Assembly (NCBI GenBank): GCA_030828505.1
Contig: JAURCJ010000002.1
Coordinates: forward strand, 1 to 64,000
Source of the DNA: Alphaproteobacteria bacterium
Lineage (GTDB): Bacteria > Pseudomonadota > Alphaproteobacteria > TMED109
Direction of reading: 5' to 3'
DNA: 64,000 nucleotides
Shown here: piece by piece, positions 2,366 through 13,647 of the stretch
How the letters are laid out: every line of letters starts with the position of its first letter
How positions within the stretch are numbered: the stretch's first letter is position 1
Made by a program: the position numbers and the translations under genes
Notes under the pieces: generated by a model
Seen by the model: the letters and a program-made list of their open reading frames with translations, nothing else
Told to the model about the DNA's origin: nothing
Databases searched by the model: none

Positions 2366-3439
2366 ATGAAAAATAAATATGTTCTAAATTTAGATGATAT
2401 ACCTGTTAAGCAAGCTCATAAGTTTAATATAAATAAACTAAATGAGTTCTTAACAGGTAAATTAGATGATTTTCATGAAATTAGTAAGGTTGGTCAATTT
2501 AATGCTGGTCAGTCTAATCCTACATTTGTAATAGAAGATTCAAATCATAAAAGATATGTTCTACGAAAAAAACCTCCAGGAAAGTTGCTCCCATCTGCAC
2601 ATGCTGTTGATAGGGAATATAAAGTCCAAAAAGCTTTATATGATACTGATGTTCCTGTAGCGAAAATGTATTTATACTGTGAAGACCAAGATATTATTGG
2701 TACAGAATTTTATATAATGGAATATCTGGAAGGAAGAGTATTTGAGGATACTACTTTACCTGGTCACTCTCCAAAAGATAGAAGTTTGATATACAATAGT
2801 ATGAATGAAACATTAGCTGCTTTACATAAGGTTAAACCTGAAGACGTTGGTTTAGAAAATTTTGGAAGACCTGGAAGCTATTTTTTAAGACAATTAAAAA
2901 GATGGTCACAGCAATGGGAGATATCTAAGCAACAAGATATTCCAGAAATGCCGTTATTAATAGAATGGTTATCAAATAATATTCCTGAAAGTGATGAAAC
3001 AACAATTGTTCATGGTGATTATAGGTTAGGTAACTTAATTTATGATCTAAATGAGCCTAAAGTTATTGCTGTCTTAGATTGGGAATTATCTACTTTAGGT
3101 CATCCTCTTGCAGATTTGGGATATAATTTAATGCTTCATGAAGAAGATTCAGACGTTCGTTCTGGTTTTAGTTTAAAGAATTTGGATTTAGTAAAATTAG
3201 GTATACCAACTAAGGATTACTTAGTGGAAAAATACTGTGAAATGGTAAAGAGAGATATTATTAATCCAAATTTTTATATAGTATTTTCAATGTTTAGAAA
3301 TGTAGCTATTTTAGAAGGTGTTTTAGCTAGGGGAAGAGCAGGCAATGCTTCTTCTTCATTAGCTGAAGAAAAAGGAGCTATGTCAAAGCCCATTGCAAAA
3401 ATAGCTTGGGATTTAGTGCAAAACAGTAAACTAGATTAG
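2366..3439 (+). CDS. APH-family phosphotransferase (LvaA / ACAD10-11 kinase-domain like)
   Basis: This 357-residue protein belongs to the aminoglycoside phosphotransferase (APH) kinase fold. The catalytic loop VHGDYRLGN (about 216-224) gives the HxDxxxxN signature, and VLDWELSTLGHPLADLGY further on supplies the metal-binding Asp (DWE in place of DFG). An N-terminal glycine-rich region (GQFNAGQSNPTF) matches the nucleotide loop. In bacteria and animals, close relatives sit beside or are fused to the ACAD10/11 dehydrogenase and phosphorylate the 4-hydroxyl of 4-hydroxyacyl-CoA. Here it lies 13 bases behind such a dehydrogenase, so the two are read as one enzyme pair. Its TAG stop overlaps the stop of the convergent oxidase gene by four bases (TTAG). 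Antibiotic resistance is unlikely. Confidence 0.85.
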   Translation: MKNKYVLNLDDIPVKQAHKFNINKLNEFLTGKLDDFHEISKVGQFNAGQSNPTFVIEDSNHKRYVLRKKPPGKLLPSAHAVDREYKVQKALYDTDVPVAKMYLYCEDQDIIGTEFYIMEYLEGRVFEDTTLPGHSPKDRSLIYNSMNETLAALHKVKPEDVGLENFGRPGSYFLRQLKRWSQQWEISKQQDIPEMPLLIEWLSNNIPESDETTIVHGDYRLGNLIYDLNEPKVIAVLDWELSTLGHPLADLGYNLMLHEEDSDVRSGFSLKNLDLVKLGIPTKDYLVEKYCEMVKRDIINPNFYIVFSMFRNVAILEGVLARGRAGNASSSLAEEKGAMSKPIAKIAWDLVQNSKLD

Positions 3440-4599
3440 TTATTTCTATATCTAAGGTTTTCTCTGGACAAGTCAGATATTTTATTGCATCCCATAAGTT
3501 TCATATCACGTTCTATTTCATTCCTGAAGTTACCCAGAGCTTTCTCAACTGCAGGTTGACCTCCACCTCCTAGAGCATAAAGATAGTATTTACCTCCAGA
3601 ACAACACTTTGCTCCTACGGATAGAGCTTTAAGAACATGAGTTCCTCTTTGAATGCCTCCATCACAAATAACATCAATTTTATCGCCTACTGCGTCCACT
3701 ATTTCTGCTAATTGATCGAAAGGACTTCTGGATCCATCTAACTGTCTACCTCCATGATTTGAAACCATTATTGCAGTTGCTCCAATATCTACTGCCTTTT
3801 TTGCATCCTCAACACTCATAATCCCTTTTAAACAAAAATGTTTGCCCCATTTTTTATTAATTTCTTCCGCATCTTTCCAGTTCATAGTTTGGTCTAACAT
3901 ATTTGTGAAATAGTCTCCTACAGATATAGCTATATTAGTTCCTGCATTAACAAATTTCGACAATTGAGGTAAGTCAAATTTTTCATGAGTAAAATAATTG
4001 ATTGCCCACATAGGGTGGCTTGCAAAGCTTAATAGACTTTTTAGTGTTAATTTGGGTGGACTCGTGAAACCAGTATGTAAATCTCTTTCTCTATTGCCGC
4101 CTGTTATAGTATCTACAGTAAGAGCTATAGCTTCATAATTAGCTTCTTTACATAAATCTATCATATGGTTATTTAGGCCTTTATCTTTATGATAATATAA
4201 TTGAAATAGTTTAGGAGAAGATATTTCTTTGCTCATCCTCATTATATCTACCGTACCTAAAGAAGATAAACCAGACATTGTTCCAAATTTTTCAGCTGCT
4301 CGTGCAACTGCTAATTCGCCTTCATGGTGGAATAGTCTTTGTAAAGCTGTAGGAGAACAAAATAATGGCATATCTAATTTTTGTCCCATAACAGTAACTG
4401 ACATATCTATATCCTTAACTCCTGCCAATACATTAGGAACTAAATCGCATTCTTCATATGCTGCTGTATTTCTATTCTTAGTTATTTCATCATCGGCTCC
4501 TCCATCAATATAATGAAATATTGGCCCAGGAAGTTTGCTTTTAGCTAACTCTCTAAAATCTTGAGTATTATGACAGTCCTTAATTCTTTTAAATATCAT
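3436..4599 (-). CDS. lldD: FMN-dependent alpha-hydroxy-acid dehydrogenase (L-lactate dehydrogenase/oxidase family)
   Basis: A 387-residue TIM-barrel flavoprotein of the LldD/glycolate oxidase family, which oxidises L-2-hydroxy acids to 2-oxo acids. The active-site block SNHGGRQLDGSRSP contains the catalytic histidine and substrate arginine, DGGIQRGTHVLKAL binds the FMN phosphate, and GKYYLYALGGGGQPAV ends the barrel. The N-terminus (FHYIDGGADDE) is canonical. ATG 4599 is preceded by AAGGA. L-lactate is the commonest substrate, but mandelate-, glycolate- or longer-chain hydroxy-acid specificity cannot be excluded. It lies downstream of the HSD10-like SDR on the same strand, 78 bases apart, and is convergent with the kinase gene. 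The symbol marks the family rather than a proven substrate. Confidence 0.85.
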   Translation of the reverse strand: MIFKRIKDCHNTQDFRELAKSKLPGPIFHYIDGGADDEITKNRNTAAYEECDLVPNVLAGVKDIDMSVTVMGQKLDMPLFCSPTALQRLFHHEGELAVARAAEKFGTMSGLSSLGTVDIMRMSKEISSPKLFQLYYHKDKGLNNHMIDLCKEANYEAIALTVDTITGGNRERDLHTGFTSPPKLTLKSLLSFASHPMWAINYFTHEKFDLPQLSKFVNAGTNIAISVGDYFTNMLDQTMNWKDAEEINKKWGKHFCLKGIMSVEDAKKAVDIGATAIMVSNHGGRQLDGSRSPFDQLAEIVDAVGDKIDVICDGGIQRGTHVLKALSVGAKCCSGGKYYLYALGGGGQPAVEKALGNFRNEIERDMKLMGCNKISDLSRENLRYRNN

Positions 4600-7469: not shown

Positions 7470-8009
7470 ATGAAAAAATCTATTAATAAAAATATAGCAA
7501 ATTGGTCTTATGATATATACCAAGTTTTAAGCCAAAATAATGCTAAACAAATAGCATATGTCCCAGATGCTGGACATAAAGAACTTATAGAATATTGTGA
7601 AAATAATAAATCGATGAAGATGGTAAGTTTAACTTCTGAAGAAGAAGGTTTAGGCTTATTAGCTGGTGCTTGGTTAGGAGGAGAAAAAGGGGTATTATTA
7701 ATGCAATCAAGTGGAGTAGGAAATTGCATTAATGCTATCGCATCTATAACAAGAGCTTGTGATTTTCCTCTTTTAATGCTTATAACTATGAGGGGTGAAT
7801 GGAATGAATTTAATCCATGGCAAGTTCCAATGGGGCAAGCTACAGAAAAAGTTTTAGAAGCATTAAATGTAGTGACAACCAGATGTAATAAAATAGAAGA
7901 AATTTCTGACGCGGTCTCTGCAATGCTGGGCTTAGCCTATAAATCTAATTGTATATCTGCTGTTCTTTTATCTCAAAGATTAATAGGTGCAAAGAGTTTC
8001 AAGGAATAA
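7470..8009 (+). CDS. ThDP-dependent 2-oxo-acid decarboxylase, alpha subunit (ComD-like)
   Basis: This 179-residue protein matches the N-terminal (PYR) half of ThDP decarboxylases of the sulfopyruvate/phosphonopyruvate decarboxylase group. TSEEEGLGLLAGAWLGG carries the glutamate that activates the ThDP pyrimidine, and MQSSGVGNCINA is the next conserved block. It lacks the cofactor diphosphate motif, which is in the following gene, so the enzyme is a split heteromer. ATG 7470 is preferred to TTG 7467; no strong ribosome binding site is seen. It begins a + strand cluster with the beta subunit (two bases apart), an acyl-CoA dehydrogenase, a CoA-transferase and a hydratase. Sulfopyruvate is only one possible substrate; no sulfonate genes are nearby. 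Confidence 0.78.
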   Translation: MKKSINKNIANWSYDIYQVLSQNNAKQIAYVPDAGHKELIEYCENNKSMKMVSLTSEEEGLGLLAGAWLGGEKGVLLMQSSGVGNCINAIASITRACDFPLLMLITMRGEWNEFNPWQVPMGQATEKVLEALNVVTTRCNKIEEISDAVSAMLGLAYKSNCISAVLLSQRLIGAKSFKE

Positions 8010-8011
8010 AT

Positions 8012-8605
8012 ATGAATAATTATGAATTAAATAGACGGTACGTAATAAGCGAGTTGTTAAAAAATAGAAAAGATAATTTGGTTATTAATGGTTTAGGAGG
8101 AACATGTTGGGATGTTGCTTCTTTAGGGGATAATAAATTAAATTTTTATGTATGGGGAGGTATGGGTAATGCCTCTATGATTGGATTAGGTTTGGCTTTA
8201 AGCCAACCTAATAAAAAAATTATAGTAGTTACGGGTGATGGTGAGATGCTAATGGGATTAGGTTCCTTAGTAACAATAGCGGTTAAAAAACCTAAAAATC
8301 TTGCCATAGTGGTATTTGATAATGAATTATATGGAGAAACAGGTAATCAAAAAACACATACAGCATATGGAGTAGACTTAAGCGAAATAGCTATGGGTTC
8401 TGGTATAAAAAATTCTAAAATATTACAGAGTAAAACGGATTTAAAAATTTTATCTGAAGATATAAATCAAATAAATGAGCTTTCGTTTACCCAAATAAAA
8501 ATTAATAATGAATTGGGGGAAACTGTATTGCCTATTAGAGAGGGACCATATATAAAATCACGTTTTAGAGAAACTTTATTAGGTAAAGAAGCTTTACTTG
8601 AATAA
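8012..8605 (+). CDS. ThDP-dependent 2-oxo-acid decarboxylase, beta subunit (ComE-like)
   Basis: This is the C-terminal (PP) half of the split decarboxylase. GDGEMLMGLGSL with an Asn about 27 residues after the GDG (VVFDN) is the ThDP/Mg-binding motif, and ELYGETGNQ follows as in sulfopyruvate and phosphonopyruvate decarboxylases. The start is taken at ATG 8012, two bases after the alpha stop and behind AAGGA; a frame extension to 7949 would overlap the alpha gene by 61 bases and is unlikely. It is 197 residues long, normal for ComE-type subunits. Together with alpha it should decarboxylate a small 2-oxo acid to an aldehyde in the cytosol. No aldehyde-using partner such as Xsc is visible here. 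Confidence 0.8.
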   Translation: MNNYELNRRYVISELLKNRKDNLVINGLGGTCWDVASLGDNKLNFYVWGGMGNASMIGLGLALSQPNKKIIVVTGDGEMLMGLGSLVTIAVKKPKNLAIVVFDNELYGETGNQKTHTAYGVDLSEIAMGSGIKNSKILQSKTDLKILSEDINQINELSFTQIKINNELGETVLPIREGPYIKSRFRETLLGKEALLE

Positions 8606-8618
8606 AAATTTGTTACAT

Positions 8619-8634
8619 GAGCATAATAATGCTC
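8619..8634 (+). repeat. Perfect GC-containing dyad after the decarboxylase genes
   Basis: GAGCAT-AATA-ATGCTC is an exact 6-4-6 inverted repeat 14 bases past the ComE-like stop codon. It would form a small hairpin in the transcript between this gene and the acyl-CoA dehydrogenase. There is no following T-run, so it is not a standard terminator; an mRNA processing or binding site is possible. Confidence 0.3.
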
Positions 8635-8700
8635 TATATGAAAATAAAAAAATTGAATTATAAATTATATAATTGTTAACTAACTTTTTTTAAGGAATAT

Positions 8701-9894
8701 GTGTTGTCAGAAAATAATAATAGAATTGAGAGTATCAAAAGTTTAAACCCAGATGAATGGGAGGATATAAGAAGTGGAGTTATCAACCTTTGTCATAATT
8801 TTCCAGGAGAGTATTGGAGAAGTTTAGACAGTGAAAGAAAATACCCAGAAGAATTTGTTAAAGCTCTTACAGAAGCTGGCTATTTAGCATGTCTGATACC
8901 TGAAGAGTATGGAGGTTCAGGCCTTCCTATTCAAGCTGCGTGCGTAATTCTTGAAGAAATACAGAGATCTGGCGGAAATGGTGCAGCATGTCATGCGCAA
9001 ATGTATATTATGGGAGCTCTATTAAGGCATGGATCGAAAGAGCAAAAAGATAAATACTTACCAAAAATATCTTCAGGTGAATTACGTTTACAGGCTTTTG
9101 GAGTAACGGAACCAGATGCCGGGACAGATACTTTATCAATCAGAACTAAAGCAACTAAAACAAATAATGGCTATGTTGTGAATGGACAAAAAGTTTGGAC
9201 AAGTAGAGCTGAGTATTCTGATTTAATGTTACTCTTGGCGAGAACTTCTTCGGATAAAAATATAAAAAGAACTGAAGGTTTGTCATTATTTATAATTGAT
9301 ATGCAAAAAGCAAAAAATGAAGGTCTTTCAATTAAACCTATTAAAACTATGATAAACCATGCAACTACAGAAGTATTTTTTGACGATTTAGAGATACCCT
9401 TAGATAGTTTAATAGGTGAGGAGGGCAAAGGTTTTAAATATATATTAGATGGAATGAATGCTGAACGTATTTTAATTGCTGCCGAATGTATAGGTGATGC
9501 AAAGTTTTTTTTAGATAAAACAACAAAATATGCCTCTTCTAGAGAAGTTTTTGGAAGACCAATTGGTCAAAATCAGGGAATTCAATTCCCTATTGCCAGA
9601 TCTTATGCAGATATGGAAGCAGCTGCTCTCATGGTAGATAGAGCAGCTAATTTATTTGATAATAATATAGCATGTGGAGCGGAAGCAAATATGGCAAAAT
9701 TATTATCGTCAGAAGCTTCATGGAAGGCAGCTGAAGCTGCTATGCAAACATTCGGAGGTTATGGTTTTGCTGAGGATTATGATATAGAAAGAAAGTTTAG
9801 AGAGACAAGATTATACCAAACTGCTCCAATCTCTACTAATTTAATCTTAGCTTTTATAGCACAAAATGTTTTAGGGCTTAAAAGGTCATATTAG
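8701..9894 (+). CDS. Acyl-CoA dehydrogenase with helix-G catalytic base
   Basis: A 397-residue acyl-CoA dehydrogenase. TEPDAGTDTLSI (136-147) and VNGQKVWTSRAEYSDLMLLLAR are the flavin-contact strands, FGGYGFAEDYDIERKFRETRLYQTAPIST the C-terminal helix. The usual C-terminal EGT glutamate is absent (QTAPIST instead). GMNAERILIA places Glu255 where isovaleryl- and long-chain acyl-CoA dehydrogenases carry their base, so the enzyme is probably active with that residue. The start is GTG 8701 or TTG 8704, the latter seven bases from AAGGA. It is followed after nine bases by the CoA-transferase. Members beside CaiB and MaoC-type genes often act on short branched or dicarboxylic acyl-CoAs; the substrate here is inferred only. 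Confidence 0.85.
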   Translation: MLSENNNRIESIKSLNPDEWEDIRSGVINLCHNFPGEYWRSLDSERKYPEEFVKALTEAGYLACLIPEEYGGSGLPIQAACVILEEIQRSGGNGAACHAQMYIMGALLRHGSKEQKDKYLPKISSGELRLQAFGVTEPDAGTDTLSIRTKATKTNNGYVVNGQKVWTSRAEYSDLMLLLARTSSDKNIKRTEGLSLFIIDMQKAKNEGLSIKPIKTMINHATTEVFFDDLEIPLDSLIGEEGKGFKYILDGMNAERILIAAECIGDAKFFLDKTTKYASSREVFGRPIGQNQGIQFPIARSYADMEAAALMVDRAANLFDNNIACGAEANMAKLLSSEASWKAAEAAMQTFGGYGFAEDYDIERKFRETRLYQTAPISTNLILAFIAQNVLGLKRSY

Positions 9895-9903
9895 GAGATA
9901 ACT

Positions 9904-11028
9904 GTGAAAACATTAGATGGAATTTTAGTAGTATCTTTAGAGCAAGCAGTAGCTGCACCTTATTGTTCATTAAGGCTAGCTGAGGCAGGAGCAAGGGTAA
10001 TTAAAATTGAAAGAAAAGAAGGTGATTTTGCTAGGTATTATGATAAAGATGTTAAAGGTAATAGTGCTTACTTTGTATGGCTTAATAGGGGGAAAGAATC
10101 TTTAGTTATTGATATAAAAAATATTGATGATATGAAATTATTAAAAAAAATAATTTCTAACGCTGATATATACATTCAAAATTTAGCTCCGGGAGCAGCA
10201 GAAAGAGCAGGGTTAGGCTCGAAAGAAATGAGAGTATTAAATAAAAAGTTGATTACATGTGATATTTCAGGATATGGCCAGAATGGCCCTTATAGAGATA
10301 TGAAAGCCTATGATCTACTTGTACAAGCCGAAACCGGTTTATGCAGTGTTACGGGAACAGAAGAAGAAGAAGGAAGAGTTGGTGTCTCTGTATGCGATAT
10401 TGCATGTGGTATGAACGCACATGCTTCTATCTTACAAGCGTTATATAATAGAGAAAAAACAGGAAAAGGAAAAGGAATAGAAGTCTCATTATTTGATGGG
10501 ATGGCAGATTGGATGAATGTTCCTTATTTACAAACAGTATACGGAAAAAGATCAGTGAAAAGAGTCGGATTATCTCATCCGTCTATTGCTCCTTATGGAG
10601 CGTTTAAGTCAAAATGTGGTAAAAGAATTCTTATTTCTATTCAAAATGAAAGAGAATGGGTTCAACTGTGTTCATCTGTACTAATGTTAGAACATTTAGT
10701 GAAAGATAAGAGATTTAATAAGCCAACTAATAGAGTGAAAAACAGAAAAGAATTAGATCGAATAATTTCTATAGAGTTTCTTAAATTTGATAAAGATATT
10801 CTTTTAAAAAGGTTAAGAGATCAAAAGATAGCCTGTGGAGTATTAAATTCAATTCAAGATTTAGAGCAACATCCGCAACTCAGAAAAGTAAAATGTTTAA
10901 TTGGTAATGATGAAATTGAATTAATTGCTTCTCCATCTATAATAATTGGCGAAGAAAATTATATTGGAGAAGTTCCTGATATAGGCAGCAATTCTGAAGA
11001 TATAAGGATAGAATTTAATGGAGAATAA
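9904..11028 (+). CDS. CaiB/BaiF family III CoA-transferase
   Basis: This 374-residue protein is a family III CoA-transferase, which passes CoA from a donor such as succinyl-CoA to an organic acid without a free acyl-enzyme release. The N-terminus LDGILVVSLEQAVAAPYCSLRLAEAGARVIKIE is the family signature, and ENxA-type core RGKESLVIDIKN, DIYIQNLAPGAAERAGLG and YGQNGPYRDMKAYDLLVQAETG follow. The YDLL block includes the catalytic Asp. GTG 9904 is preceded by AGGAG. It overlaps the hydratase gene by 11 bases, showing tight co-expression. Activation of an itaconate- or mesaconate-like acid is plausible given the neighbours, but no specificity residue was decoded. Confidence 0.87.
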   Translation: MKTLDGILVVSLEQAVAAPYCSLRLAEAGARVIKIERKEGDFARYYDKDVKGNSAYFVWLNRGKESLVIDIKNIDDMKLLKKIISNADIYIQNLAPGAAERAGLGSKEMRVLNKKLITCDISGYGQNGPYRDMKAYDLLVQAETGLCSVTGTEEEEGRVGVSVCDIACGMNAHASILQALYNREKTGKGKGIEVSLFDGMADWMNVPYLQTVYGKRSVKRVGLSHPSIAPYGAFKSKCGKRILISIQNEREWVQLCSSVLMLEHLVKDKRFNKPTNRVKNRKELDRIISIEFLKFDKDILLKRLRDQKIACGVLNSIQDLEQHPQLRKVKCLIGNDEIELIASPSIIIGEENYIGEVPDIGSNSEDIRIEFNGE

Positions 11029-11866
11029 TGCAGATATAATGTCTTGGATAGGTAAGTCTATAGAAAAAGATGATTATATTAGTGATTTTCCTCTTAAAGC
11101 TATGGCTGCCGTTTTTGATTATAATGTCAAAATATTTGAAAAAGTTCCTTCTGGCTGGCATTGGCTATACTTTTTAAATTTACCATTACAAAAGAATTTG
11201 GGCTTAGATGGACATGAGAAAAGAACAGGTTTTATGCCCCCAATACAATTGCCAATTAGAATGTATGCAGGCGGAGAAATTATTTTTCATAAACCATTAT
11301 CTATAGGGCAAAAATTACGAAAAAAATCTAGTATAGTATCTATTGATAATAAAATTGGGGCTACAGGAAATTTAACTTTTTTAAAAATTAATCATGAAAT
11401 ATTCAATGAAAAAGAAATTCTTATTAATGAGTTCCAAAACCTTGTTTATAGAGAAGATAAGAAAAACCAAAAGAAGAAAAAAGTTTTTGCTATGAAAGCA
11501 CCTGATAAATATGATTATGAAAAACAATGGAATACTTCTTCGGAAATGTTATTTCGGTATTCCGCTTTAACTCATAACACTCATAAAATTCATTATGATT
11601 TTCCATACGCCACTAAAAAAGAAGGTTATCCCAATATAGTTGTTCATGGCCCTTTGATGGCAACATTTTTGTTAGATTTAATAGATAATATACTTAAAGA
11701 TAATAACAAAAAACTTATTAAGTTTACATTTAAATTAGAAAGCCCTGTTTTTGTAGGTGGAACCATTTCAGCCCAAGCTGTTAAAACAAGTAAAGGCCTA
11801 GATCTTTGGATTAAAGATCAAAATGGATATCAATCTTTGTCTGCTGAGGCAGAAATAAGCTCCTAA
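11018..11866 (+). CDS. HTD2/MaoC-type acyl-CoA hydratase (mesaconyl/itaconyl-CoA hydratase-like)
   Basis: This 282-residue protein has two hot-dog-like halves: an N-terminal FAS1-type dehydratase region (GWHWLYFLNLPLQKNLGLDGHEKRTGFMPP, about 41-70) and a C-terminal MaoC-like half in which LFRYSALTHNTHKIHYDFPYA contains the expected Asn-His/His-Asp catalytic region and VVHGPLMATFLLDLI ends the fold. It resembles mesaconyl-C4-CoA, itaconyl-CoA and 3-methylfumaryl-CoA hydratases. AAGGA lies about nine bases before ATG 11018; ATG 11039 is a weaker alternative. The last gene of the + strand cluster, its stop overlaps the convergent acyl-CoA dehydrogenase stop by four bases (CTAA). Confidence 0.8.
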   Translation: MENNADIMSWIGKSIEKDDYISDFPLKAMAAVFDYNVKIFEKVPSGWHWLYFLNLPLQKNLGLDGHEKRTGFMPPIQLPIRMYAGGEIIFHKPLSIGQKLRKKSSIVSIDNKIGATGNLTFLKINHEIFNEKEILINEFQNLVYREDKKNQKKKKVFAMKAPDKYDYEKQWNTSSEMLFRYSALTHNTHKIHYDFPYATKKEGYPNIVVHGPLMATFLLDLIDNILKDNNKKLIKFTFKLESPVFVGGTISAQAVKTSKGLDLWIKDQNGYQSLSAEAEISS

Positions 11867-13647
11867 TTTTTCATATTCATAAATATAGAATCTAAATTTT
11901 TATGAGTGTTAACTACAACATTTTTTAAACTTAATGAAGTTTCTAGTATAGTATGCACGTAAAAATAAGCAGTTTCAATTTTTTGATTGAGAAAATTATC
12001 GGTATCAGTACTTTCCAGTAAATTGAATGCTTTGACTGCACTTTTTGCCATTATCCACCCTCCAAATATATTACCACACATATCTAAAAATGGTGTTGCC
12101 CCTGATGCTGCATTTCTTTTATTTTTTTTCCACATATCCAAAAGTTTATCAGCAGTATCTTCAAGAGTATTAATAGCAAAAATTACCTTATCTCCTATTT
12201 CAATTAATTTATCTTTGTCAGATTTTATACAGTCTTGAGCGTCTTTTCTCATATCATCTAAAAACCTTTTAAATACATTACCATTATCAAGGGTGAGCTT
12301 TCTTCTTAATAGATCTAGAGCTTGAATGCCATTTGTTCCTTCATATATAGGTAAAATTCTTGCATCTCTATAATGCTGTGCAGCACCAGTTTCTTCTATA
12401 AAACCCATTCCACCATGAATTTGAACGCCGGTAGATGCTATCAGTACTCCTTGATCAGTACACCACCCTTTAACTATAGGTGTTAAAAGGTCTAAGTTTT
12501 CTTGAGCTTTATTCTTTTCATCTGTAGACGATGCATTTTTTGATAAGTCCAACTCATTTGCTGTAAATAATGATAAAGCTCGCATAGCTTCTATTCTTGA
12601 TCGCATATCCATTAACATTCTTTGTACATCTGGATGATCAATGATAGCTACTGTTCCTTCTTTAGAGTTATCTATTGAATTTCCTTGTTCACGAGAAAAA
12701 GAAAAATTAAGTGCTTGTTGATATGCTCTTTCAGCTATAGAAACACCTTGAATACCTACATTAAGTCTTGCGTTATTCATCATAGTAAACATTGCTTTTA
12801 GGCCACTATGTTTTTCACCAATTAATTCTGCATTAGCGCCTTCATTATCTCCATATGCTAAAACACATGTAGGGCTAGCATTTGTTCCAAGCTTATGCTC
12901 AATTGAAACTACCCTTACATCATTTTTTTCTAATGTTTCTCCCTCTTCATTTACTAGTTTTTTTGGGGATATAAATAATGATATACCTTTACTGCCTTCA
13001 GGCGCATCTGGTAATCTTGCTAAAACTAAATGAATAATATTGTCATTCATATCTTGATCACCATGAGTAATATATATTTTATTTCCATATAATTTATAAT
13101 TGTCTTTATTTGGAATAGCTTTTGACTTTAGTAAAGCTAGATCTGACCCTGCCTGAGATTCTGTAAGATTCATAGTGCCTGACCATTCACCACTTATCAT
13201 TTTAGGTAAATATTTTTTCTTTTGTTTATCTGTTCCATAAGCTTCTATAACTTCTATCGCACCCTGCGTTAAAAGCATATTTAGAGAAAAACTCATATTA
13301 GCTGCATGCCAAATTTCATTTAGGCCACCTACAATATTCCATGGCATTTCTTGACCACCATAGTCTTTTGAACCGGCAACTGAAGACCAACCTCCTTGTA
13401 TATATTGATTATAAGCATCTTTAAAACCTTTAGGCATTCTTACGACTCCATTTTCTAGAGTAAGGCCTTCTTTATCTCCTGTACTATTTAAAGGCGCAAG
13501 AACATTAGAAGCAAATTTACCTGCTTCTTCAAATATTTGTTTTCTTAGATCTGGATCAGAATATTCATCATTTTTATTTTCTACTTTTGAATTAATATTA
13601 TTTAATACAAATAAAATATCTTCAATTGGAGCATTATATTCTTGCAT
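11863..13647 (-). CDS. Long acyl-CoA dehydrogenase (about 600 aa, DmdC/FadE-like)
   Basis: A 594-residue acyl-CoA dehydrogenase of the long type, with an extra N-terminal segment beginning YNAPIEDILFVLNNI and a roughly 130-residue C-terminal extension. NLTESQAGSDLALLKSKA is the flavin loop, and GGMGFIEETGAAQHYRDARILPIYEGTNGIQALDLL carries the catalytic EGT glutamate intact. Proteins of this architecture include the methylmercaptopropionyl-CoA dehydrogenase DmdC of marine bacteria and generic FadE-type enzymes; the sequence alone does not separate them. It lies 17 bases downstream of the FAD-linked oxidase. ATG 13647 has only a weak purine-rich ribosome binding site. Confidence 0.87.
   Translation of the reverse strand: MQEYNAPIEDILFVLNNINSKVENKNDEYSDPDLRKQIFEEAGKFASNVLAPLNSTGDKEGLTLENGVVRMPKGFKDAYNQYIQGGWSSVAGSKDYGGQEMPWNIVGGLNEIWHAANMSFSLNMLLTQGAIEVIEAYGTDKQKKKYLPKMISGEWSGTMNLTESQAGSDLALLKSKAIPNKDNYKLYGNKIYITHGDQDMNDNIIHLVLARLPDAPEGSKGISLFISPKKLVNEEGETLEKNDVRVVSIEHKLGTNASPTCVLAYGDNEGANAELIGEKHSGLKAMFTMMNNARLNVGIQGVSIAERAYQQALNFSFSREQGNSIDNSKEGTVAIIDHPDVQRMLMDMRSRIEAMRALSLFTANELDLSKNASSTDEKNKAQENLDLLTPIVKGWCTDQGVLIASTGVQIHGGMGFIEETGAAQHYRDARILPIYEGTNGIQALDLLRRKLTLDNGNVFKRFLDDMRKDAQDCIKSDKDKLIEIGDKVIFAINTLEDTADKLLDMWKKNKRNAASGATPFLDMCGNIFGGWIMAKSAVKAFNLLESTDTDNFLNQKIETAYFYVHTILETSLSLKNVVVNTHKNLDSIFMNMKN

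What the first reader, a model, noticed from the sequence alone, without database searches (positions are those of the whole stretch)
7470..11866. Possible new organic-acid pathway: ComDE-like decarboxylase with ACAD, CaiB and HTD2 hydratase
Five same-strand genes combine a split ThDP 2-oxo-acid decarboxylase, an acyl-CoA dehydrogenase, a family III CoA-transferase and a two-domain hot-dog hydratase. The last three resemble itaconate/mesaconate-type clusters, but the expected CitE-like lyase is absent and a decarboxylase stands there instead. No sulfonate or phosphonate genes are near. The gene set does not match any single pathway I know, and a decarboxylation branch for a branched or dicarboxylic acid is a reasonable proposal.
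Basis: partly seen in the sequence, partly recalled or inferred. Interest (0 to 1): 0.62.

Follow-up and report, generated by a model that had tools for sequence, protein, structure and literature searches.

The report
Decarboxylase-fed methylsuccinate breakdown operon
A marine alphaproteobacterium carries an operon that most likely strips CO2 from a branched 2-oxo acid and feeds the product into the recently described methylsuccinate/itaconate breakdown route; the same gene combination recurs in many unrelated bacteria and appears to be undescribed.

Summary
[quoted passage not shown] The lyase is not replaced by the decarboxylase: a RipC/Ccl-like lyase sits elsewhere in the genome. The split ThDP decarboxylase is an accessory. 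It is missing beside the CoA genes in several relatives, but it has joined this ACAD in at least four, probably about six, separate decarboxylase lineages, in Alpha- and Betaproteobacteria, Deinococcus, Acidobacteriota and Thermomicrobiota. In Bosea one operon reads decarboxylase alpha-beta, aldehyde dehydrogenase, ACAD, CoA-transferase, hydratase, lyase. That gives the order of steps: 2-oxo acid, aldehyde, acid, CoA ester, enoyl-CoA, hydroxyacyl-CoA, then pyruvate plus acetyl-CoA. The best-fitting 2-oxo acid is a methyl- or methylene-2-oxoglutarate, which would give methylsuccinate or itaconate; this identity is inferred only. Sulfopyruvate and phosphonopyruvate roles are not supported. I found no paper describing the combination. 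It is a new variant of a known pathway and a testable source of methylsuccinate.

The parts
7470..8009 (+). alpha subunit (PYR domain) of a split ThDP-dependent 2-oxo acid decarboxylase, ComD/RhiE-like
   Evidence: Pfam TPP_enzyme_N; TIGR03845 139.3 bits, below its 147.95 cut-off; RhiE (9iz3_A) E 5e-13; EEG motif conserved in 104 aligned pairs
8012..8605 (+). beta subunit (PP domain) of the same decarboxylase, ComE/RhiF-like
   Evidence: Pfam TPP_enzyme_C; GDG...DNELYGETG ThDP motif intact; TIGR03846 138.9 bits, far below its 221.5 cut-off; RhiF (9iz3_B) E 5e-17
8701..9894 (+). acyl-CoA dehydrogenase, probable (RS)-methylsuccinyl-C4-CoA dehydrogenase
   Evidence: 59-61% identical to the ACADs of five-gene Hyd-ACAD-MmgE-CoaT-CitE clusters; shares NAER and RKFRETRLYQ-AP signatures with them
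9904..11028 (+). family III CoA-transferase, probable itaconate/methylsuccinate CoA-transferase
   Evidence: CoA_transf_3 E 5.5e-94; 41-45% identical to the CoaT of five-gene clusters
11018..11866 (+). two-hot-dog hydratase, probable itaconyl-CoA / mesaconyl-C4-CoA hydratase
   Evidence: PDB 8khg itaconyl-CoA hydratase E 5.6e-45, motif FRYSAxTxNxHxIHYDxPYxTxxEGYP shared
11863..13647 (-). convergent FadE/DmdC-type acyl-CoA dehydrogenase, conserved neighbour in the family; role in the pathway not shown
   Evidence: Pfam ACAD domains + PF12806; adjacent to Hyd in 18 of the 20 family loci fetched

Best explanation
The operon is a catabolic unit for a 2-oxo acid whose decarboxylation and oxidation give a C5 branched dicarboxylate. 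(1) The alpha-beta ThDP enzyme decarboxylates the 2-oxo acid to an aldehyde [inferred from family and neighbours]. (2) An aldehyde dehydrogenase, encoded elsewhere in this genome but beside alpha-beta in many others, oxidises it to methylsuccinate (or itaconate) [inferred]. (3) The CoA-transferase makes the C4-CoA ester from succinyl-CoA. (4) The ACAD forms mesaconyl-C4-CoA. (5) The hydratase forms (S)-citramalyl-CoA. (6) A RipC/Ccl-like lyase on another contig cleaves it to pyruvate and acetyl-CoA. Steps 3-6 are shown biochemically for homologues in P. aeruginosa and C. necator (PMC12290011), not for these proteins. The most likely 2-oxo acid is 4-methyl-, 4-methylene- or 3-methyl-2-oxoglutarate [inferred; about 45% for this substrate class].
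For: ACAD subfamily and five-gene cluster match (PMC12290011). Complete operon alpha-beta-ALDH-ACAD-CaiB-hydratase-lyase in Bosea. Divergent or split versions in Sinorhizobium, Mesorhizobium, Haematobacter, Sphingobium, Variovorax, Deinococcus. The Variovorax one abuts ACAD-CoaT-MmgE, ETF, CitE and a predicted carbonic anhydrase. Same order alpha-beta-ACAD-CoaT in unrelated G307. Co-occurrence: alpha in 17 of 398 Pseudomonadota genomes, ACAD in 16 of those 17 against 64 of 398 overall (P 5e-13; by genus 8 of 9, P 3e-5); 3 alpha loci within 5 kb of an ACAD against 0.04 expected. The alpha-beta tree needs 1 + 5 changes of the ACAD-linked label, at least 1 + 3 forced by strongly supported branches. 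ALDH (45% identity or more) within 9 kb in 28 of 110 alpha-beta loci, and in 13 of the 18 with the ACAD. Own genome has a RipC-like lyase (228 bits, cut-off 375) and two ALDHs.
Against: The pair is absent from most other genera of the family (g3-g7) and lost in G010. Many alpha-beta relatives sit without the ACAD (92 of 110 loci), so the family has several substrates. The window's own alpha-beta lineage has its nearest relative (L064) without CoA genes. No ALDH, MmgE or lyase lies in the window operon. The lyase is only 26-34% identical to cluster lyases and below the RipC cut-off. The 2-oxo acid has not been identified by any direct evidence.
Confidence: 0.66

Rival explanations
1. The three CoA genes are an itaconate/methylsuccinate unit, and the alpha-beta pair serves a separate pathway, having been inserted next to them by chance or because both are useful organic-acid genes.
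For: Family relatives in g5 and g7 keep ACAD-CoaT-Hyd without the pair; many alpha-beta loci elsewhere lack CoA genes; in G012/G013 a PcaC-like decarboxylase and an HIBADH-like dehydrogenase travel with the pair, a module also seen in Betaproteobacteria without the ACAD.
Against: Repeated independent adjacency to the same ACAD subfamily across phyla, one-operon order in Bosea and G307, and genome-level co-occurrence.
Confidence: 0.2
2. Alpha-beta is a sulfopyruvate decarboxylase (ComDE-like) feeding sulfoacetaldehyde to Xsc.
For: Best NCBIfam hits are sulfopyruvate decarboxylase alpha and beta; beta-proteobacterial relatives lie beside a sulfite-oxidase-like gene.
Against: Both scores are below the curated cut-offs (139.3 vs 147.95; 138.9 vs 221.5). 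No Xsc at cut-off in the genome (best 272.6 vs 676.4), though the assembly is only about 70% complete.
Confidence: 0.04
3. Alpha-beta is a phosphonopyruvate decarboxylase (RhiEF/Ppd-like) in phosphonate biosynthesis.
For: RhiEF is the closest solved relative; some GenBank records call the homologue phosphonopyruvate decarboxylase.
Against: TIGR03297 77.5 and 117.1 bits against a 312.5 cut-off. The only PEP-mutase-family hit is a partial match in a 470-aa ORF, which looks like isocitrate lyase. Partner genes elsewhere are CoA-ester genes.
Confidence: 0.03
4. The same operon logic but for another diacid: the 2-oxo acid yields a substrate other than methylsuccinate/itaconate (for example a different branched or C6 diacid), and the ACAD of alpha-beta clusters has shifted specificity.
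For: Window ACAD is 60% and hydratase 33% identical to the Pseudomonas-type set; several Deinococcus and Thermus clusters use a short MaoC instead of the two-domain hydratase; accessory genes vary (PxpA, DAO, SDR, VOC).
Against: Methylsuccinate-isomerase-type MmgE and CitE genes accompany many of these clusters; ACAD signature residues are unchanged.
Confidence: 0.2

Closest known systems
Itaconate/methylsuccinate degradation cluster of P. aeruginosa (PA0878-PA0883) and Cupriavidus necator (E6A55_22580-22600), PMC12290011
   Same: Same ACAD subfamily (59-61% identity to five-gene clusters of that gene content, L202/L206/L207/L208), family III CoA-transferase, two-hot-dog itaconyl-CoA hydratase
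   Different: Window operon has no adjacent lyase or MmgE methylsuccinate isomerase, and begins with a split ThDP 2-oxo acid decarboxylase that the described clusters do not have
ComDE sulfopyruvate decarboxylase / RhiEF phosphonopyruvate decarboxylase / LumKL quinoxaline-carboxylate decarboxylase (two-subunit ThDP decarboxylases; PMC12141560, PMC12746152)
   Same: Two-subunit architecture, intact ThDP motifs, homologous to RhiE and RhiF by sequence (LumKL was compared by description only)
   Different: Below the ComDE equivalog cut-offs; neighbours are ALDH and CoA-ester genes, not coenzyme M, phosphonate or flavin genes
Yersinia-type ripABC itaconate degradation
   Same: Carboxylate to CoA ester, hydration and C-C cleavage logic; the genome's lyase scores best against RipC (228 bits, below the 375 cut-off)
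   Different: No ACAD or decarboxylase in ripABC, and PMC12290011 describes the Yersinia and Pseudomonas clusters as convergent

Membership tests
P. aeruginosa-type itaconate/methylsuccinate cluster | (RS)-methylsuccinyl-C4-CoA dehydrogenase subfamily ACAD | tested here: met
   59-61% identity to ACADs inside five-gene Hyd-ACAD-MmgE-CoaT-CitE clusters; signature motifs shared. Activity itself not testable; PA0879 itself was not in the collections, only clusters of the same gene content.
P. aeruginosa-type itaconate/methylsuccinate cluster | Family III itaconate/methylsuccinate CoA-transferase | tested here: met
   PF02515 E 5.5e-94; 41-45% to cluster CoaTs
P. aeruginosa-type itaconate/methylsuccinate cluster | Itaconyl-CoA / mesaconyl-C4-CoA hydratase | tested here: met
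   PDB 8khg E 5.6e-45 with shared motif
P. aeruginosa-type itaconate/methylsuccinate cluster | (S)-citramalyl-CoA lyase in the cluster | tested here: not met
   No lyase in the operon; a RipC/Ccl-like gene on another contig, 228 bits vs cut-off 375
P. aeruginosa-type itaconate/methylsuccinate cluster | MmgE/PrpD methylsuccinate isomerase in the cluster | tested here: not met
   No such ORF in or next to the operon; rest of the genome not searched
ComDE sulfopyruvate decarboxylase | NCBIfam equivalog scores TIGR03845 and TIGR03846 | tested here: not met
   139.3 < 147.95 and 138.9 < 221.5 bits
ComDE sulfopyruvate decarboxylase | Downstream sulfoacetaldehyde acetyltransferase (Xsc) in the genome | tested here: inconclusive
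   Best 272.6 bits vs cut-off 676.4; assembly about 70% complete
RhiEF/Ppd phosphonopyruvate decarboxylase | NCBIfam TIGR03297 score | tested here: not met
   77.5 and 117.1 bits vs 312.5; the model is a fused single chain, so split subunits score low by design
RhiEF/Ppd phosphonopyruvate decarboxylase | PEP mutase partner in the genome | tested here: inconclusive
   One partial hit of 50.6 bits inside a 470-aa ORF, probably isocitrate lyase; genome incomplete
Two-subunit ThDP 2-oxo acid decarboxylases (general) | Separate PYR and PP domain proteins with intact ThDP motifs | tested here: met
   Pfam TPP_enzyme_N and TPP_enzyme_C; GDG...N motif and EEG conserved
Two-subunit ThDP 2-oxo acid decarboxylases (general) | Decarboxylase activity and substrate | not testable with these tools
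   Needs enzyme assay

The most novel reading that the evidence does not exclude
A widespread, undescribed catabolic pathway converts methyl- or methylene-substituted 2-oxoglutarates (from substituted glutamates or oxoprolines) by ThDP decarboxylation and aldehyde oxidation into methylsuccinate or itaconate, and on to pyruvate and acetyl-CoA. It would be an internal biological source of methylsuccinate, and would explain the peanut-Bradyrhizobium version (glutamate-dehydrogenase family enzyme, alpha-beta, ALDH, CoA-transferase and hydratase, with no ACAD nearby) as a route for an already unsaturated methyleneglutamate.
Probability: 0.4. Interest if true: 0.75.

Novelty: new variant of a known kind. 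Interest (0 to 1): 0.6.

Why it matters
[quoted passage not shown] A decarboxylase-ALDH branch physically joined to the methylsuccinate genes in many bacteria suggests methylsuccinate is made inside the cell from a 2-oxo acid, and gives a short list of substrates to test. It also gives a likely function to a large group of split ThDP decarboxylases that databases now call sulfo- or phosphonopyruvate decarboxylases, including in marine and rhizosphere bacteria.

Tried and rejected
Sulfopyruvate and phosphonopyruvate roles: scores below cut-offs and partner genes not found. FMN 2-hydroxy-acid dehydrogenase at 3436-4599 as a co-gained partner: rejected, because orthologues lie elsewhere in genera that lack the pair. 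Literature searches for the gene combination, for methyleneglutamate catabolism and for methylsuccinate semialdehyde gave nothing relevant. Structure prediction was not run: homology by sequence was already clear and substrate identity would not be settled by a fold.
Full report
Setting. The window lies in a 1.44-Mb, about 70% complete genome; congeners in the public collection are titled MarineAlpha9_Bin3 and TMED109, marine Alphaproteobacteria.

Check. The five genes are present at the stated coordinates, same strand, closely packed, with complete domains. The order is kept in the genus and in genus g2. In G012 and G013 two further genes lie between beta and the ACAD: a PcaC-like carboxymuconolactone decarboxylase-family protein and an HIBADH-like dehydrogenase. 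G010 has lost alpha, beta and most of that insert, leaving a short ORF that resembles the HIBADH C-terminus (read by eye).

The three CoA genes. The ACAD belongs to a tight subfamily found in 64 of 398 Pseudomonadota genomes (58-70% identity). In L206, L207 and L208 it sits in Hyd-ACAD-MmgE-CoaT-CitE order, the gene content of the itaconate/methylsuccinate cluster whose ACAD was shown to be an (RS)-methylsuccinyl-C4-CoA dehydrogenase, whose MmgE protein is a methylsuccinate isomerase and whose CoA-transferase prefers (R)-methylsuccinate (PMC12290011). The window ACAD shares the subfamily's NAER and RKFRETRLYQ-AP motifs, including Gln where the usual C-terminal catalytic Glu of ACADs stands and a Glu in the helix-G position known from isovaleryl-CoA dehydrogenase (alignment; residue roles from my own knowledge). 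The hydratase matches the itaconyl-CoA hydratase structure 8khg. A Thermus plasmid places the same ACAD with a class-I fumarase-like pair, CaiB, MaoC and a lyase, again a C5-branched diacid setting. I therefore assign methylsuccinate/itaconate chemistry to these three genes with good but indirect support.

The lyase. The genome holds one CitE-like protein elsewhere (contig C16; L225:7307-8155). NCBIfam ranks RipC/Ccl, the itaconate lyase, first (228 bits; cut-off 375). A homologue occurs in five of seven genus members. The lyase is thus relocated, not replaced.

The decarboxylase pair. Alpha and beta are homologous to RhiE and RhiF and score below the ComDE cut-offs. Genera g3 to g7 of the family lack the pair (in the assemblies held); genus g8 has it about 10 kb from the CoA genes. 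In g5 and g7 the ACAD-CoaT-Hyd unit stands directly next to MoaA, without the pair. So the pair is an accessory to a three-gene unit that can stand alone.

Why the link is real. First, co-occurrence: in one sample of 398 Pseudomonadota, alpha (E up to 1e-20) occurs in 17 genomes and 16 of these carry the ACAD, against 64 of 398 overall (hypergeometric P 5e-13; by genus 8 of 9 against 47 of 213, P 3e-5). Genome size and relatedness inflate the first figure; the genus figure is safer. Second, adjacency: three alpha loci in that sample lie within 5 kb of an ACAD, 0.04 expected (P 8e-6; 6e-4 if the related pair G304/G082 counts once). Third, recurrence: on a tree of 104 alpha-beta pairs the ACAD-linked label arises once in the window's own family and needs five changes among the other seven linked rows, at least three of them forced by strongly supported branches. 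Fourth, named clusters: Bosea sp. F3-2 has alpha-beta-ALDH-ACAD-CaiB-hydratase-lyase in one run. Sinorhizobium RAC02, Mesorhizobium ciceri WSM1271 and Mesorhizobium AR02 have lyase-hydratase-CaiB-oxidoreductase-ACAD-LysR divergent from alpha-beta-ALDH. Haematobacter, two Sphingobium plasmids, Variovorax and two Deinococcus species have further arrangements. Of 110 alpha-beta loci outside the window's genus and g2 (some chosen because the ACAD was already known to be there), 18 have the ACAD, 28 an ALDH and 13 ACAD + CoaT + ALDH within 9 kb.

Mechanism. The gene order dictates 2-oxo acid, aldehyde, acid, CoA ester, enoyl-CoA, hydroxyacyl-CoA, lyase products. If the acid is methylsuccinate, the 2-oxo acid must be 3- or 4-methyl-2-oxoglutarate; if itaconate, 4-methylene-2-oxoglutarate (simple chemistry). 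Hints towards glutamate-like sources: PxpA (5-oxoprolinase family) genes near alpha-beta in 7 of 110 loci, amino-acid-oxidase-like FAD enzymes, an aminotransferase in the two Mesorhizobium clusters, and a Glu/Leu/Phe/Val dehydrogenase in a peanut Bradyrhizobium plasmid whose cluster has CoA-transferase and hydratase but no nearby ACAD, as expected for an unsaturated substrate. Six further peanut-associated Bradyrhizobium plasmids carry a matching alpha gene but were not opened. That peanut is rich in 4-methyleneglutamine is from memory; no held paper confirmed it.

Limits. No activity is shown for any protein of the window. ALDH, lyase and isomerase are not in the operon; two ALDH genes exist elsewhere. 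The 2-oxo acid is a hypothesis.

Noticed in passing
L063:8990-10251 and L060:11143-12404 (G012, G013): PcaC-like and HIBADH-like genes inserted between beta and ACAD; the set alpha-beta + CMD + HIBADH also occurs in Betaproteobacteria (L085, L087, L101, L104, L111, L127) without CoA genes, so it may be a module of its own.
   Followed up: partly
L040:6679-6840 (G010): Short ORF resembling the C-terminus of the HIBADH-like gene where alpha-beta should be: apparent recent deletion of the decarboxylase module in one congener.
   Followed up: partly
L225:8148-12178 (own genome, contig C16): HD-domain protein, PhyH/PhnY-like dioxygenase (192 bits to methylphosphonate hydroxylase, below cut-off) and a phosphonate-type ABC transporter: probable methylphosphonate or phosphonate oxidation genes in this marine genome.
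   Followed up: no
L080, L086, L097, L098, L124, L134: Two alpha-beta pairs in tandem followed by an ALDH in marine Alphaproteobacteria, with enoyl-CoA hydratase nearby: another, different use of the same decarboxylase family.
   Followed up: no
L066, L067, L069, L071, L072, L081, L089, L106, L107, L126: In Betaproteobacteria alpha-beta lies directly after a sulfite-oxidase-like molybdopterin protein, a recurrent pairing of unknown meaning.
   Followed up: no
L186, L219, L224, L236, L241, L243, L255: PxpA (5-oxoprolinase subunit) genes recur next to alpha-beta; L070 and L246 have hydantoinase/oxoprolinase genes instead, hinting at a lactam or oxoproline precursor.
   Followed up: partly
G001 contigs C7, C11, C18: The same cluster appears two or three times in one MAG on different contigs with near-identical sequence, which may be strain mixture or true duplication.
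   Followed up: no
G021-G027 (L252, L253): In genus g8 alpha-beta lies about 10 kb from Hyd and, where read, directly upstream of a pantothenate-synthetase-like gene.
   Followed up: partly
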